NCBI RefSeq assembly: GCF_030409805.1
Contig: NZ_JAUFQP010000010.1
Location: 377,001-441,000 of the forward strand
Source of the DNA: Algibacter miyuki
GTDB taxonomy: Bacteria > Bacteroidota > Bacteroidia > Flavobacteriales > Flavobacteriaceae
Direction: 5' to 3'
Length of the DNA stretch: 64,000 nucleotides
The notes beneath the pieces are model-generated. The model had not been told where the DNA came from. It saw only the letters and a program-made list of their open reading frames with translations, and did not search any database. The translations under genes were made by a program, and so were the position numbers. Below are positions 1,362 through 40,961 of the stretch, in pieces. The first letter of the stretch is position 1. Each line of letters begins with the position of its first letter.

Positions 1362-4343
1362 ATGTTTAAAAACGTTCTAGGAATCTTGAGCTTCTTTTGC
1401 TACAGTTGCCTTTTTGGCCAAGATTACTTCCCGAAAAATGATGGTGTAACCACGACCAACACCAATTACACAGCATTCACTAATGCAAAAATCCATATTT
1501 CTAGCAGTCATATTATTAACAAAGGCACACTGCTAATAAAAGATGGTAAAGTAGTAGCCTCAGGAACCGAGGTTAGTATACCGAAAAACAGCAAAATTAT
1601 TAATATTGAAGGCAAAAGTATTTACCCTTCCTTTATTGATATGTATTCGGATTTTGGTATTGAAAAACCCAAACGAGAAACCGGTAACAGAAGTGCATCC
1701 CCACAATATGACGCCAGTAGAACGGGCTATTACTGGAACGACCATGTGATGCCAGAAAACCAAGCGCTTTCACAATTTAAGTTTGATGCTAAAAAAGCTA
1801 AAGATTTATTAGAAGCCGGGTTTGGAGTAGTTAACACCCACATTCAAGATGGTATTCATCGAGGAACCGGCACACTAGTTGCTTTAAACAGTCAAGCTGG
1901 AAATGAAACACGTATTCTTAAAGAGAAATCGGCACAATACCTGTCTTTTTCTAAAAGTGCATTATCTCGACAGTCTTATCCAAGTTCGCTCATGGGCAGC
2001 ATGGCATTACTTCGCCAATTTTATCTCGATGCAGAATGGTATAAAAAAGGACTCAGTAAAACGAAAGATTTATCTATTGAAGCCTTAAATAGAAACCAGA
2101 ATTTAATTCAAATTTTTGACGCAGGAAACAAAGCCAATGCACTAAGAGCCGATCTTGTTGGCGACCAATTTGGTATTCAATATGTTATTTTAGGTGGTGG
2201 TGATGAGTATGAGCGTATTGCCGATATAAAAAACACCAACGCCTCATTTATACTTCCTATAAATTTTCAAGATGCTTATGATGTTGAAAATAGTTTTTTA
2301 ACAAATTCACTAGCGCTTAGCGATATGAGAGCGTGGAGTCAAGAACCTACAAACCCGAAGGTTTTTGCCGAAAACAACATCGATTTTGCTTTAACAACGC
2401 ATACTTTAAAATCGCCAAGTGAGTTTAAAGACAAGTTAATACAAGCTATTGACAATGGACTTTCTAAAGAAAAAGCACTCGAAGCATTAACCACTATCCC
2501 GGCCAAATTACTGGGTCTACCATCAGAAATAGGGACGCTTACAAATGGTGCTTACGCTAACTTTTTAATTACTTCGGGAGATGTTTTTGATAAGAAAACA
2601 AAACTCTTTGAAAATTGGGTGCAAGGCGAGCAACACATGGTTACCAACATGAACACTAAAGATATTAGTGGTGATTATGAATTTAGCTTAGCCAATACAG
2701 TTTACAAGATGACGCTATCGGGAGATAGCAAAAAACTTAAATCTAAAGTGACGAGCGAAAGCAAAACTTTAGGCTCTAAAGTAAGTTATGATAATGATTG
2801 GCTTCAACTTTCATTAACCGCGATAGATTCTACTTCGGAAGGCTTTACCCGAGTTATGGCTCAGGTTGAAAACAATGCATCACTTAAAGGAAAAGCAATT
2901 TTACCTAATGGCGCAGAAACTGTTTTTTTAGCCACAAAAAATAAAAAAACAAAAACAGATTCCGAAGAAAAAGATGAAAAAAAGGCAGATTCGACAAAAA
3001 CCATTGCCGCTATAACGTACCCCAATACGGCTTACGGATTTAAAACCCTCCCAAAACAAGAAACATTACTTTTTAAAAACGCGACGGTTTGGACTAACGA
3101 AGCCGATGGTATTTTAAAAAACACCGATGTGCTTATTAAAAATGGTAAAATAATTAAAATTGGCAACAACCTTAGCGATACAAAAGCTGAAATCATTGAT
3201 GCTACCGGCAAGCATTTAACCGCTGGTATTATTGACGAGCACTCGCATGTTGCTGCAGCTTCAGTTAACGAAGGCGGTCAAAACTCATCGGCCGAAGTAA
3301 GTATGGAAGATGTTATCGATGATGAAGATATTGGTATTTATCGCAACCTAGCTGGTGGTGTAACATCTATGCAAATATTGCACGGTTCGGCAAATCCAAT
3401 CGGTGGGCGTTCGGCTATTATAAAATTAAAATGGGGCGAATCGGCCAATAATTTAATTTATAACGATTCTCCTAAATTTATAAAATTCGCGCTTGGCGAA
3501 AATGTAAAACAAACCAGACATACCAACGGCGTGCGTTTTCCGCAAACCAGAATGGGCGTGGAACAACTTTATATTGATTATTTTACCCGAGCAAAAGCCT
3601 ATAAAGCTTTAAAGAAAAGTGGAAAACCATATAGAAAAGACATCGAAATGGATGTGCTTGTTGAAATTCTGAATAAAGAACGTTTCATTTCTTGTCATTC
3701 TTATGTGCAAAGTGAAATTAATATGTTGATGAAAGTTGCGGAACAATTCGACTTCAATATTAATACATTCACCCATATATTAGAAGGTTATAAAGTGGCC
3801 GACAAAATGGTAGAACATGGCGTAGGTGGCTCAACCTTTAGCGATTGGTGGGCGTACAAATACGAAGTTAACGATGCCATTCCTTACAATGCTGCCATTA
3901 TGCACAATGCAGGTGTTACTGTAGCGATTAATAGTGACGACCCTGAAATGTCTAGACGTTTAAATCAAGAAGCAGCTAAAACCATTAAATACGGAGGTAT
4001 GAGCGAAGAAGACGCTTGGAAGTTCGTAACCTTAAACCCTGCCAAACTATTACATATTGATCATCGTGTGGGAAGTATAAAAGTTGGAAAAGATGCCGAT
4101 GTGGTATTATGGACCGATCACCCGATGTCTATTTATGCTAAAGCCGAAAAAACCATTATTGAAGGCGTAACTTATTTTGATTTAGAACGCGACAACAAAC
4201 TGCGTGCCGACATTAAAACAGAGAAAAACGAGTTGATAAACCAAATGCTTAAAGCTAAAAACAAAGGTTTAAAAACACAACCTATTAAGAAAAAGGAAAA
4301 AGAAGCAATGCATTGCGATTATGTAGGCAATCAAATTAATTAA
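1362..4343 (+). CDS. Exported tandem amidohydrolase family protein
   Basis: The 993-residue protein has a signal peptide (about residues 1-20) and two consecutive amidohydrolase-like modules. The C-terminal module (from about 575) keeps the metal-binding H-S-H at 627-629 and a late aspartate in an N-S-D-D-P-E motif near 857, so it is probably the catalytic half. The N-terminal module (about 35-440) has the fold features but D-M-Y-S-D where HxH is expected, so it looks inactive. A lysine- and acid-rich linker near 525-545 separates the halves. The family hydrolyses amide or ester bonds in small molecules or dipeptides; the substrate here is unknown. The next gene starts 10 bases on and encodes a related protein, so they probably form one operon and may form a complex. 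Confidence 0.85.
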   Translation: MFKNVLGILSFFCYSCLFGQDYFPKNDGVTTTNTNYTAFTNAKIHISSSHIINKGTLLIKDGKVVASGTEVSIPKNSKIINIEGKSIYPSFIDMYSDFGIEKPKRETGNRSASPQYDASRTGYYWNDHVMPENQALSQFKFDAKKAKDLLEAGFGVVNTHIQDGIHRGTGTLVALNSQAGNETRILKEKSAQYLSFSKSALSRQSYPSSLMGSMALLRQFYLDAEWYKKGLSKTKDLSIEALNRNQNLIQIFDAGNKANALRADLVGDQFGIQYVILGGGDEYERIADIKNTNASFILPINFQDAYDVENSFLTNSLALSDMRAWSQEPTNPKVFAENNIDFALTTHTLKSPSEFKDKLIQAIDNGLSKEKALEALTTIPAKLLGLPSEIGTLTNGAYANFLITSGDVFDKKTKLFENWVQGEQHMVTNMNTKDISGDYEFSLANTVYKMTLSGDSKKLKSKVTSESKTLGSKVSYDNDWLQLSLTAIDSTSEGFTRVMAQVENNASLKGKAILPNGAETVFLATKNKKTKTDSEEKDEKKADSTKTIAAITYPNTAYGFKTLPKQETLLFKNATVWTNEADGILKNTDVLIKNGKIIKIGNNLSDTKAEIIDATGKHLTAGIIDEHSHVAAASVNEGGQNSSAEVSMEDVIDDEDIGIYRNLAGGVTSMQILHGSANPIGGRSAIIKLKWGESANNLIYNDSPKFIKFALGENVKQTRHTNGVRFPQTRMGVEQLYIDYFTRAKAYKALKKSGKPYRKDIEMDVLVEILNKERFISCHSYVQSEINMLMKVAEQFDFNINTFTHILEGYKVADKMVEHGVGGSTFSDWWAYKYEVNDAIPYNAAIMHNAGVTVAINSDDPEMSRRLNQEAAKTIKYGGMSEEDAWKFVTLNPAKLLHIDHRVGSIKVGKDADVVLWTDHPMSIYAKAEKTIIEGVTYFDLERDNKLRADIKTEKNELINQMLKAKNKGLKTQPIKKKEKEAMHCDYVGNQIN

Positions 4344-38320: not shown

Positions 38321-38980
38321 CTATAGTTCTAAACCTTCAACAAAAAATTCTTTAGGCAGATATTCTTCGCTAAACTTTTGTTGTAAATGATTAAACCACA
38401 TAACTTTGAACGATTGATCACTAATGATTCTTTTAGGCTTACCGTCTGTATAAAACAAATCTTTTTGTTCTTCATTCTTTATCCCGGATAAGATAAAATC
38501 TGGTGACTGAAAAGATGGGCCAGGTGTTTTTTCTAGAACATGTCCATCATAAGATTTTCTGTGTTCTAATTTTTTTGTTTTAAACTGTACTCGTTTTCCA
38601 AACTCATAGTTAAAATTACTTTTATAATTTAAAACCTCTGATATTAAATCAACAGTCAAAGACTTGCTCTTACTTTCATCTTTTCTGTAGTACTTAAGCT
38701 CTAAGTAACTTTTAATTAAAGAATTATAAATAGTTTTCTCGACAAATTCACTTTTATTAGCATTAAAAAAAACACATACATATTTCACTACATCAGCTAT
38801 TTGTGCTTTTTCAATCACATCACTGTAAAGATTTTTTTTATCTTCCTTTTCATATAACACTTCTTTTATTAACATTAGCGGTGGTACGTGAGCAGGAAAC
38901 TCCATAATTCTTTTAGGAACATAACTAAACAATGGATGTGATTTAAGTGTTACAATATCTCCTATTTTAAATACAGCCAT
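38321..38980 (-). CDS. Unknown protein with a small beta-barrel-like N-terminus
   Basis: The 219-residue protein is charged, probably cytoplasmic, with no signal or membrane segment. The opening F-K-I-G-D-I-V-T-L-K-S, a later V-K-Y-V-C-V-F-F-N and S-L-I-K faintly resemble the DUF2158/YodC small barrel. The central and C-terminal parts (about 100-219) match nothing I know. It lies between the B12 importer and the reverse transcriptase and is transcribed away from the latter. Its AT-rich composition and position suggest that it is part of, or a passenger in, the accessory module. Confidence 0.6.
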   Translation of the reverse strand: MAVFKIGDIVTLKSHPLFSYVPKRIMEFPAHVPPLMLIKEVLYEKEDKKNLYSDVIEKAQIADVVKYVCVFFNANKSEFVEKTIYNSLIKSYLELKYYRKDESKSKSLTVDLISEVLNYKSNFNYEFGKRVQFKTKKLEHRKSYDGHVLEKTPGPSFQSPDFILSGIKNEEQKDLFYTDGKPKRIISDQSFKVMWFNHLQQKFSEEYLPKEFFVEGLEL

Positions 38981-39099
38981 ATTCTTTCTTTATTTTTTAC
39001 TAAATATAAGAATAATAGTATATTTACCTGAAAGTAAGGAAGTTCTTTAGTTAAAAGGAATAAAACATTTGTTGAACTACTGTATTGGTTATTAATCAA

Positions 39100-39440
39100 T
39101 CACTTAATCCGACCTTTTCGATAGAAATGGGATAATAAATATGGTGATTAAGTACTATGTAATTCTGTTAGTTTTGTTACACCAACATAAGAAATTATTT
39201 TCGGAAGTAACGTTACTACCTCAATAATTCTTATTAGAACATTGATATACACCAAGCTGTGGCATACATTAAAGGCTTCTAAAGCTAAGGTAATTATTGC
39301 TAGGGTAAGTTCTATCATATATAAGTATTTATTAATTAGACGTACAATTGCAACGTGAGTCGAGAACTCGGCTAATGGTTCAATCCTTTTTAAGGTGTAA
39401 GTTTTATTCTGTTATAAATACGTGCGAGAACTTCTCTTAC
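39100..39440 (+). ncRNA. Predicted reverse-transcriptase-associated noncoding RNA
   Basis: The 470-base gap before the reverse transcriptase has no ordinary gene but shows structure: an 8-bp stem ACTTAATC (39102-39109) / GATTAAGT (39146-39153), a palindrome AGTAACGTTACT at 39206-39217, a candidate -7 element TATTTTCG (39197-39204) with TTG 19 bases before it, and paired repeats (ACGTG plus CGAGAACT at 39353-39368 and 39420-39432). A structured RNA directly 5' of the enzyme gene is the rule for DRT2 and several other defence reverse transcriptases. The boundaries are uncertain. Confidence 0.5.
39239..39343. other. Stop-free 105-base putative template repeat (neo-like)
   Basis: The segment is bounded by ATTAGA-ACA-TTG (from 39233) and ATTAGACGT-ACA-ATTG (from 39335). 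The two ACA triplets lie exactly 105 bases (35 codons) apart. The plus frame from 39191 to 39355 has no stop, so joining the unit head to tail gives an endless frame (begins T-L-I-Y-T-K, ends Y-L-L-I-R-R; eight basic, no acidic residues). On the minus strand one frame is also open through the unit and its junction and contains an ATG at 39318-39316 (begins M-I-E-L-T-L-A-I-I-T). The other two plus frames have stops at 39243 and 39280. Function is inferred by analogy with DRT2. Confidence 0.45.
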
Positions 39441-39452
39441 TTTTATTAAAAT

Positions 39453-40961
39453 ATGAAAGCACAAAAAGATTGGTTTAAAGACAGAGGGTATCCACATTTT
39501 ACTAATAAGACTCCAATGTCTATTAGAAAAAATATTGAGCGCTTTGTAACCAATCAAAAAAAAGTAGCACAGCATTCCTTCTCCCCTCTTATTTTTAAAG
39601 AAATCAAACAAAGGAGATATAAATTATCCAAATTCAATGATGTTAAACGGCGTTCGCATAAAAAACTAAAGCATGATAAAATTGTATCGAACTCTAAAAT
39701 TAGAGAAATACTATACGCAACTCACATAGATGCACATATCTACTCGTATTATACCCAACAAATAATAACACCAAAATACGAAGCTTACCTAGAACAAAAC
39801 CCTTTACTTTCAAATTCAATAACGGCATACAGGCAAATAGAAACAGACAATAAGCTTAAATTTAAAAACAATGTGCATTTTGCAAAAGATGTATTTGATG
39901 AAATTAAACGAAGAGAAAACTGTGTTGCACTTGTTTTAGATATAGAAAACTTTTTCCCAAGTCTAAACCATAAAAAATTAAAATTAGCTTGGGCGAAGAT
40001 ATTAGGTCATAAAACGCTACCGAAAGATCATTTCAACCTTTTTAAAGCGACTACAAAGTTTTCTTATGTAAAGCTGAAAGACCTAAAAACTAAAAATAGT
40101 CATTTTGATGAAAAAGAATTATCTAAACATAGAAAAGCAGGTAAGCATACTTTTTTTGAAAATATAAAAGACCTCATTGATTCTGATGTTATAATTCATA
40201 AAAACCAAAAACATGATGACGATAAAAACCTAATGGGAATACCTCAAGGTTTACCTATTAGCGCATTATTGGCGAATATCTACATGTTAGATTTTGATAA
40301 AGCCGTTTTAAATGAGTTAACCTTAAACCACAATGTGTTTTACCGAAGATATTCCGATGATATCGTGGTGATTTGTAAAGAACATCAAATATCTTTAATT
40401 GAAGAATTTGTCAAAAATGAAATGACAAAAAACAAATTAACGGTATCCTTAGAGAAAACAGAAAAAACACTTTTCAAAATAAACAATAGTCGTTTACAAT
40501 GTTATAAAATTAAGAAAAACGGGAGTTTAAAAGAAAATATCCCCTTAAACTACTTAGGTTTTGAGTTTTATGGTTATCAAACATTAATTAAATCTAAAAA
40601 CCTAGCTAAGTTTTATAGAGAAATGAAACAAACTATAAAACGTAAGCATAAACGAGTTGAGATTATAAAAGAAAAACACCTTATGGATGACGCTCCAATA
40701 TTTAAAAGAAAACTATATAGACTTTTTAGTTTTAAAGGTGAAAAGTCTAGAATGTTACCAGCAAAACGAACCAACTATATTGATGGCAAAGCGCAAACTG
40801 ATTATTTTGACCGAAAGTTTAGAGGTAATTATTTAAGATATGCTTACAGAGCATCGGACGATTTAGAAGCTCCAGAAATAAAAAGACAACTACGGAATCA
40901 TTGGGAAATACTTCAGAAAACAATGAAAAAATATGATTTTTCGAATGTGAAGAAAGACTAA
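39453..40961 (+). CDS. Defence-type (UG/DRT) reverse transcriptase, possibly DRT2-like
   Basis: The 502-residue reverse transcriptase has the first catalytic aspartate in D-I-E-N-F-F at 163-168, G-I-P-Q-G-L-P-I-S at 262-270, and the catalytic box Y-S-D-D at 300-303. The N-terminal part (about 75-150, Y-A-T-H-I-D-A-H-I-Y-S-Y-Y and A-Y-R) is typical of Unknown-Group enzymes, not of group II introns; no maturase or endonuclease domain is present. Retron hallmarks were not seen. A noncoding, structured upstream region with a stop-free repeat points to the DRT2 class, where the enzyme copies a template RNA over and over on phage infection. The class assignment needs a profile search. Confidence 0.85.
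   Translation: MKAQKDWFKDRGYPHFTNKTPMSIRKNIERFVTNQKKVAQHSFSPLIFKEIKQRRYKLSKFNDVKRRSHKKLKHDKIVSNSKIREILYATHIDAHIYSYYTQQIITPKYEAYLEQNPLLSNSITAYRQIETDNKLKFKNNVHFAKDVFDEIKRRENCVALVLDIENFFPSLNHKKLKLAWAKILGHKTLPKDHFNLFKATTKFSYVKLKDLKTKNSHFDEKELSKHRKAGKHTFFENIKDLIDSDVIIHKNQKHDDDKNLMGIPQGLPISALLANIYMLDFDKAVLNELTLNHNVFYRRYSDDIVVICKEHQISLIEEFVKNEMTKNKLTVSLEKTEKTLFKINNSRLQCYKIKKNGSLKENIPLNYLGFEFYGYQTLIKSKNLAKFYREMKQTIKRKHKRVEIIKEKHLMDDAPIFKRKLYRLFSFKGEKSRMLPAKRTNYIDGKAQTDYFDRKFRGNYLRYAYRASDDLEAPEIKRQLRNHWEILQKTMKKYDFSNVKKD

What the first reader, a model, noticed from the sequence alone, without database searches (positions are those of the whole stretch)
39191..39355. Stop-free, ACA-bounded 105-base unit in the noncoding region before the reverse transcriptase: a candidate neo-like hidden gene
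Seen: a direct repeat ATTAGA-ACA-TTG / ATTAGACGT-ACA-ATTG, with the two ACA triplets 105 bases (35 codons) apart and in the same frame. The plus frame is open from 39191 to 39355 and stays open if the unit is joined end to end. Known: DRT2 enzymes copy a short segment of an upstream RNA repeatedly, with short ACA repeats guiding the jump, and the product encodes an endless toxic protein (Neo). Inferred: this locus works the same way with a 35-residue repeat. Caveat: single open frames of this length do occur by chance in AT-rich DNA.
Basis: partly seen in the sequence, partly recalled or inferred. Interest (0 to 1): 0.92.

Follow-up and report, generated by a model that had tools for sequence, protein, structure and literature searches.

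The report
Hidden repeat gene for phage defence

Summary
The reverse transcriptase (39453-40961) is a divergent Drt2. Comparing 34 loci, then 7 held-out ones, reveals another unit. A covarying RNA (about 39034-39440) carries a variable template, 39159-39341: 183 bases, bounded by GTA, not ACA. Unit length (171-204) is divisible by three in 30 of 34 loci and 6 of 7 held-out ones. In all 36, an antisense frame stays open across the end-to-end junction; shuffles predict 0.4 of the 30. An unbiased scan ranks GTA/GTA first. A distant clade fits ATTC. Seven relatives form a Bacteroidota-type promoter across the junction; the window shows none clearly. The five exceptions carry a finite frame crossing the junction. 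Best reading: a Bacteroidota DRT2 variant whose Neo protein is antisense, with 61-residue repeats; a YodC-like gene accompanies it in all 33 relatives examined. All is inferred from sequence; no cDNA was seen.

The parts
38321..38980 (-). YodC-like partner gene (219 aa), divergent from the RNA and RT; role unknown
   Evidence: PADLOC RTasYodC 3e-74; a homologue in the locus of 33 of 33 other main-clade loci (tblastn); model mean pLDDT 86, no PDB match at E <= 0.001
39019..39027 (+). TATATTTAC, likely -7 box of the ncRNA promoter
   Evidence: position; conserved block in alignment; TAnnTTTG is the flavobacterial sigma-A -7 box (PMC9723704, passages); promoter activity inferred
39034..39440 (+). 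ncRNA; ends inferred from the closing helix P1 (39034-39046 with 39427-39440)
   Evidence: conserved blocks and covariation
39072..39077 (+). P2 5' strand UUGAAC, pairs long-range with 39378-39383 across the template
   Evidence: 97% paired against 91% permuted; double-sided changes in 3 of 6 pairs
39084..39100 (+). hairpin P3
   Evidence: 92% paired against 58% permuted; double-sided changes in 7 of 7 pairs
39159..39161 (+). left jump triplet GTA (counterpart of ACA-1), first bases of the repeat unit
   Evidence: G here in 34 of 34 loci; top pair of an unbiased scan
39159..39341 (+). template = repeat unit, 183 bases
   Evidence: divisible by three in 30 of 34 loci and 6 of 7 held-out loci
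39160..39339 (-). linear part of the Neo frame (60 of 61 codons; the last codon spans the junction)
   Evidence: open across the junction; chance 0.3% for this unit by shuffles
39316..39318 (-). likely Neo start codon ATG
   Evidence: Met invariant in 8 of 8 of the aligned template family; in-frame ATG within 28 codons of the junction in 30 of 30
39342..39344 (+). right jump triplet GTA (counterpart of ACA-2)
   Evidence: equal to the left triplet in 27 of 34 loci and 4 of 7 held-out loci
39353..39423 (+). 3' scaffold: P7 ACGU (39353-39356 with 39420-39423) enclosing hairpins P5 (39359-39372) and P6 (39383-39398)
   Evidence: P7 94% paired against 70% permuted, P5 99 against 92%, P6 78 against 70%
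39453..40961 (+). reverse transcriptase, Drt2 family, 502 aa, YSDD active site
   Evidence: PADLOC Drt2 7.1e-135; NCBIfam Drt2 363.7 bits, below its cutoff of 390; solved Drt2 chains 2.9e-51

Best explanation
This is a Bacteroidota variant of the DRT2 phage-defence system. The RT would bind an RNA of about 400 bases transcribed from just upstream and copy the template from 39341 down to 39159. At the end of each round the new cDNA would end in TAC (copied from the left GTA), melt off, re-anneal to the right GTA (39342-39344) and start again, giving a concatemer of period 183. After second-strand synthesis, presumably triggered by phage, the concatemer would be transcribed from the strand opposite to the ncRNA and translated from the ATG at 39318 into a hydrophobic protein of 61-residue repeats without a stop, which would stop growth of the infected cell. 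Supported here by computation: RT family, RNA covariation, unit ends, length rule, open antisense frame, constant partner gene. Inferred from the Klebsiella system: concatenation, phage trigger, second strand, toxicity.
For: RT is Drt2. RNA helices covary. Unit divisible by three in 30 of 34 loci (lengths 171, 174, 183, 186, 189, 192) and exactly one antisense frame open around the junction in each of the 30, 0.4 expected; sense open in 2 of 30, 0.5 expected. Held-out: 6 of 7 new loci. Of 12,000 boundary pairs GTA/GTA ranks first: 27 of 34 equal, 30 open. Equal triplets exceed pairings between loci, 8 of 10,000 permutations as high, with GTT/GTT and GTC/GTC in single loci. Junction promoter TTG-N19/20-TAnnTTT[AG] in 7 of 34, all across the junction, 0 on the sense strand, shuffle mean 0.5 and maximum 3. 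Neo hydrophobic: mean GRAVY 0.83 against 0.26 for shuffles. Positive control: an annotated drt2 locus of Psychrobacter gives an ACA-ACA unit of 105, open antisense, closed sense.
Against: No cDNA, transcript or protein was seen. 4 of 34 loci (L003, L005, L006, L021) and 1 of 7 held-out loci (L095) break the length rule, and L020 has lost the RNA. Triplets differ in 7 of 34 and 3 of 7 loci. The window's own junction has no convincing promoter; the strict pattern is absent in 27 of 34. No third-codon-position excess of changes, so no sign of selection on the peptide sequence. Single-unit structure model weak, one helix, pTM 0.37. Loci are related, so counts are not independent.
Confidence: 0.85

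Rival explanations
1. One reading: neo is on the plus strand, with a 105-base unit bounded by the ACA triplets at 39239 and 39344.
For: The frame is open and stays open when joined; 105 equals the unit length in the Psychrobacter control, by coincidence in my view; the plus frame is also open in 9 of 34 aligned loci.
Against: Chance level (17% and 10% of shuffles); both ACA in 3 of 34; stops in 25 of 34; sense openness is no more than the antisense codons produce; wrong strand for the described system.
Confidence: 0.01
2. The antisense frame is an ordinary small gene with its own start and stop, unrelated to concatenation.
For: An ATG-started linear frame exists in the window (from 39318 to a stop just left of 39151).
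Against: An ordinary gene need not be open on both sides of its start and stop around a circle; the circular frame is open in 30 of 30 loci with a unit divisible by three. It overlaps a template inside a covarying RNA, and the phase relative to the scaffold changes between families (0, 1, 2 in 16, 8, 6 loci). No third-position signal.
Confidence: 0.05
3. The RNA is copied into repeats, but the DNA itself acts (as proposed for DRT9 homopolymers) and the open antisense frame has no meaning.
For: DRT9 and DRT10 make repetitive DNA from an ncRNA (PMC12632851, passages); the peptide sequence is not conserved.
Against: 30 of 30 open frames against 0.4 expected from shuffles; unit length kept in multiples of three over 171-204 bases; RT scores as Drt2, with the next family at 6.7e-25.
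Confidence: 0.06
4. The five exceptions are decaying systems that lost the frame (rather than a finite-neo variant).
For: A single frameshift in a once open unit would leave a frame of about one unit; L020, close to L021 in the RT tree, has lost the RNA altogether.
Against: L021 and L095 keep the same layout despite 37 mismatches and gaps; L003, L005 and L006 stay in phase from ATG to junction (158, 161, 161 bases) while only the part before the ATG differs by 4 bases (subtraction mine).
Confidence: 0.5

Closest known systems
Klebsiella pneumoniae DRT2 / Neo system (PMC12039810 and PMC11100668, passages read)
   Same: Drt2-family RT; structured upstream ncRNA; variable template between short matching sequences; unit divisible by three; stop-free frame on the strand opposite to the ncRNA; hydrophobic product; in some relatives a promoter formed across the junction.
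   Different: GTA instead of ACA at the template ends; unit 183 bases (171-204 in the clade) against 111-129 in the 42 published relatives; Bacteroidota-type junction promoter where visible; longer RT (502 aa against 425 in the solved chain); a YodC-like partner gene; five loci with a finite frame.
PADLOC DRT entries RTasYodC and RTasWYL-YodC
   Same: The neighbouring gene matches RTasYodC; L058 and L065, the two fusions tested, match RTasWYL-YodC.
   Different: PADLOC names the association only; no ncRNA, template or Neo is part of those models. I recall the association from the UG/Abi survey, which is not held.
DRT9, DRT10 and telomerase (PMC12632851, passages; DRT9 and DRT10 as described there)
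   Same: Repeat addition on an RNA template, guided in telomerase by matching sequence at the template ends.
   Different: A long coding unit here; DRT9 copies a poly-U tract and DRT10 short repeats; the RT scores as Drt2.

Membership tests
DRT2 / Neo | Drt2-family reverse transcriptase | tested here: met
   PADLOC Drt2 7.1e-135, PDB Drt2 2.9e-51; NCBIfam Drt2 is its best model there but at 363.7 bits below the cutoff of 390
DRT2 / Neo | structured ncRNA upstream of the RT | tested here: met
   seven helices, paired above permuted means, P3 and P7 by 34 and 24 points
DRT2 / Neo | template flanked by two ACA triplets | tested here: not met
DRT2 / Neo | short matching sequence at both template ends, of whatever letters | tested here: met
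   window GTA/GTA; equal in 27 of 34 and 4 of 7 held-out loci
DRT2 / Neo | unit length divisible by three | tested here: met
   window 183; 30 of 34, 6 of 7 held-out
DRT2 / Neo | stop-free frame across the junction on the strand opposite to the ncRNA | tested here: met
   window and 30 of 30 loci in phase; 0.4 expected
DRT2 / Neo | promoter formed across the repeat junction | tested here: inconclusive
   strict Bacteroidota pattern across the junction in 7 of 34 relatives, not in the window
DRT2 / Neo | concatemeric cDNA and second strand on phage infection | not testable with these tools
   needs cells, phage and sequencing
DRT2 / Neo | growth arrest by Neo | not testable with these tools
   needs expression
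DRT2 / Neo | single-gene system without partner | tested here: not met
   YodC-like gene in the locus of 33 of 33 other main-clade loci; I do not regard this as defining
DRT9 / DRT10 | RT of that family; poly-U or short-repeat template | tested here: not met
   RT is Drt2; UG17, named DRT10 in PMC12632851, is the next family at 6.7e-25; no such tract seen in the sequence read

The most novel reading that the evidence does not exclude
The jump guide of DRT2 is not ACA as such but a short sequence present in matching copies at both template ends and free to change if both copies change: ACA in the Klebsiella type, GTA (GTT/GTT, GTC/GTC in single loci) here, ATTC (TTTC at both ends in L070) in a more distant Bacteroidota clade. 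In two sublineages (L003, L005, L006; and L021, L095) the synthesised gene is finite: it starts at an ATG, crosses the junction and is closed by a stop that comes into frame only in the concatemer.
Probability: 0.4. Interest if true: 0.75.

Novelty: new variant of a known kind. Interest (0 to 1): 0.62.

Why it matters
The preprint that described Neo reports that in divergent DRT2 clades Neo annotation was 'more challenging' and raises alternative mechanisms (PMC11100668, passages). I cannot tell whether its divergent clades include this one. For this clade, and in outline for a second, the analysis predicts template ends, strand, frame and repeat length, which one long-read experiment can test. 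It suggests that the guide sequence can be exchanged, which matters for reprogramming the enzyme, that genes invisible to annotation are present in many Flavobacteriaceae, and it ties a YodC-like partner of unknown role to the system.

Tried and rejected
Plus-strand 105-base unit: rejected. Rfam on 38900-39600: two matches, both far below gathering scores. Viral contigs: no relative of the RT. Codon-position test for selection on the peptide: no signal. Neo units of the window, L008, L036 and L040 against Pfam and PHROGs: nothing for the window; one weak PHROG match (E 0.043) for L040. Structure of a single Neo unit: one long helix, mean pLDDT 71, pTM 0.37, too weak to build on. YodC model against the PDB: no match at E <= 0.001. 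Clade D (L043-L045): several boundary pairs fit, so no motif named. Clade C (L046-L048): the script stopped after one locus; not used. A one-base addition at the jump, as in Klebsiella, would restore the phase of L003 (182) but not of L005 and L006 (181), so it does not explain the exceptions. Searching for Bacteroidota DRT2 papers by name gave only unrelated titles. Rows dropped before the counts: L020 (no homologous upstream RNA); L001 and L030 (the window itself); six duplicates between collections; eight held-out loci that duplicate training units.

Full report
The observation. The two ACA triplets (39239, 39344), their spacing of 105 and the open plus frame 39191-39355 are in the sequence. 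Dinucleotide shuffles of the 472-base stretch 38981-39452 reach a plus run of 55 codons in 17% of cases and an in-frame, sense-open ACA pair in 10%. Across 34 aligned loci both triplets are ACA in 3; L031, nearest by RT tree path, has AAA on the right; L002 has spacing 106; the first frame of the aligned segment has stops in 25 of 34 and none in 9. Nine open loci look like many, but long sense runs are what the antisense codons produce by themselves: shuffling the codons of the antisense frame gives a mean longest sense run of 48.4 codons, against 44.7 observed. The open plus frame is a shadow.

The enzyme and its neighbours. The RT (502 aa) is Drt2 by PADLOC (7.1e-135; next family UG17 at 6.7e-25). 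NCBIfam's best model is also Drt2, but below that model's cutoff (363.7 against 390). The best PDB matches are three Drt2 sequences (2.9e-51 and weaker). The divergent gene 38321-38980 matches RTasYodC (3e-74). tblastn finds a homologue in 33 of 33 other loci of the main clade, a partial one in L020, one in L057, and one in 5 of 28 more distant loci. Two of those five were scanned and match the YodC-WYL fusion. Four of four other genomes of the window's genus lack the RT at E <= 1e-30. In them the matches of the two flanking stretches lie 114, 117, 159 and 946 bases apart, against 2,729 in the window (subtraction mine), so the cassette is patchy in the genus.

The set. Relatives came from 28 loci of named genomes and from 397 family, 395 order and 395 phylum genomes (27, 13 and 12 with a match, the window's own genome and overlaps included). 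Thirty-four distinct loci with RT identity above 50%, the window included and L020 left out, were aligned upstream of the RT. Two conserved blocks surround a variable core.

The RNA. Cells paired against column-permuted means: P1 closing helix 92 against 87%, P2 long-range 97 against 91, P3 92 against 58, P4 87 against 82, P5 99 against 92, P6 78 against 70, P7 94 against 70. Double-sided changes occur in 8 of 13, 3 of 6, 7 of 7, 1 of 2, 2 of 6, 5 of 5 and 3 of 4 pairs. P2 joins the parts on either side of the template. The helices were named by eye from the window and the alignment; relatedness is not corrected; P6 is the weakest.

The template. The conserved blocks meet the core at GTA (39159) and GTA (39342). 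With these ends the unit is 183 bases in the window, divisible by three in 30 of 34 loci (171, 174, 183, 186, 189, 192), and in each of the 30 exactly one antisense frame is free of stops around the circle. Shuffles of the same units give 0.4 of 30; a sense frame is open in 2 of 30, 0.5 expected. Units form 12 clusters at 60% nucleotide identity; sister RTs can carry templates of different clusters (L003 and L032), so the template behaves like a swappable cassette. The phase of the open frame relative to the scaffold differs (0, 1, 2 in 16, 8 and 6 loci), so the scaffold does not dictate it. A naive binomial for 11 of 12 clusters is 5e-5 (a cluster counted by its majority).

The ends. Without choosing ends beforehand, 12,000 pairs of positions were scored for equal triplets in the 34 loci. 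GTA/GTA is first (27 equal, 30 open); the other pairs with 17 or more equal triplets have at most 10 open, and one with 16 equal has 22 open. Equal triplets exceed pairings between different loci (27 against a mean of 22.3; 8 of 10,000 permutations as high), with GTT/GTT and GTC/GTC in one locus each; 7 of 34 do not match.

Held-out test. Searches of two genera (398 and 146 genomes, 8 and 8 with a match) gave loci not used so far. With L057 there were 15; 8 duplicate training units. Of the 7 new ones, 6 have a unit divisible by three (183, 183, 186, 186, 189, 204) with an open antisense frame, one of these also with an open sense frame (L086); L095 (178) fails; triplets are equal in 4 of 7. 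Four of the 7 were missed by my first pattern rule and placed by alignment.

Controls and other clades. In an annotated drt2 locus of Psychrobacter, scanning ACA pairs for units in phase and open finds a single one, 105 bases, open antisense and closed sense. In a clade at 30-33% RT identity (L049, L050, L051, L053, L056, L070), the only ends among 15,600 pairs that are equal, in phase and open in 6 of 6 are ATT/TTC, one base apart, that is (A)TTC, units 129-141; in L070 both copies read TTTC. For L043-L045 several ends fit.

Promoter and start. TTG-N19/20-TAnnTTT[AG] occurs in 7 of 34 antisense units, all across the junction, 0 on the sense strand, shuffle mean 0.5, maximum 3. TAnnTTTG is the flavobacterial sigma-A -7 box (PMC9723704, passages); the TTG at -33 and its spacing are recalled. 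A looser TTG-N20-TAnnTT ends two bases before the junction in five relatives (L002, L007, L017, L034, L035), but the looser pattern is less specific (14 antisense, 6 sense of 34, shuffle maximum 9), and the window has neither. An in-frame ATG follows the junction within 28 codons in 30 of 30; the Met is invariant in 8 of 8 aligned units.

The product. Neo units are hydrophobic (mean GRAVY 0.83 against 0.26), the window's matches no family, and changes are spread evenly over codon positions (third position 36% over 21 pairs, 35% over 7 disjoint pairs). In the Klebsiella system, too, most conserved residues are attributed to promoter and ACA elements (PMC12039810, passages). Selection seems to act on 'open, hydrophobic, in phase' rather than on one sequence; this is inference.

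Exceptions. L003 (182), L005 and L006 (181), L021 (172) and L095 (178) break the rule. In each, the longest ATG-started frame of the concatemer crosses the junction and stops: 56, 58, 58, 75 and 72 residues. In L003, L005 and L006 it stops within a few codons of the junction; ATG to junction is 158, 161 and 161 bases, in phase with each other, while the stretch before the ATG differs by 4 bases (offsets). L021 and L095 share the layout with 37 mismatches and 20 gap columns. Decay after one frameshift would also leave a frame of about one unit, so a finite neo is a proposal. L020, close to L021 in the RT tree, has lost the RNA.

Literature. Two papers on the Klebsiella system were read in passages. 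They say that neo lies on the strand opposite to the ncRNA and that the units of 42 relatives are divisible by three (mostly 117, some 111 or 129, Klebsiella 120) with one stop-free frame each; the preprint adds that Neo annotation was harder in divergent clades. Titles and abstract starts listed by four searches include none on Neo in Bacteroidota or a GTA guide. The library lacks most subscription papers, so this is weak evidence of novelty. The UG/Abi survey that I recall for the YodC association is not held.

Verdict. A well-supported template for a neo-like gene lies here, but on the other strand, with another unit and another guide than proposed. It works like DRT2 and its RT belongs to the Drt2 family; the ACA feature of the described systems was tested and not met, so I call it a variant. 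Everything after the template is inference until cDNA is sequenced.

Noticed in passing
window 38321-40961: The YodC-ncRNA-RT cassette sits between an ABC-transporter ATPase gene and an rmuC-like gene; in the four other genomes of the genus the flanking matches lie 114-946 bases apart. Gene names by my reading of the ORFs.
   Followed up: partly
window 38321-38980; L058, L065: The partner gene is divergent from the RT in the window but in the same direction upstream of it in L039-L042, and fused to a WYL part in more distant loci; it may be a regulator or trigger component.
   Followed up: partly
L020, RT at 3001: A Tenacibaculum locus with an intact RT whose upstream RNA is gone; homology to its sisters starts only 46 bases before the RT match.
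   Followed up: partly
L003 and L032 templates: Sister RTs carry unrelated template clusters, as if templates were exchanged between systems.
   Followed up: partly
L043, L044, L045 upstream of the RT: Another Bacteroidota Drt2 clade whose conserved upstream region has a long open antisense frame; template ends could not be fixed.
   Followed up: partly
L086, RT: The RT match carries one internal TAA, so this system may be broken although its template still follows the rule.
   Followed up: no
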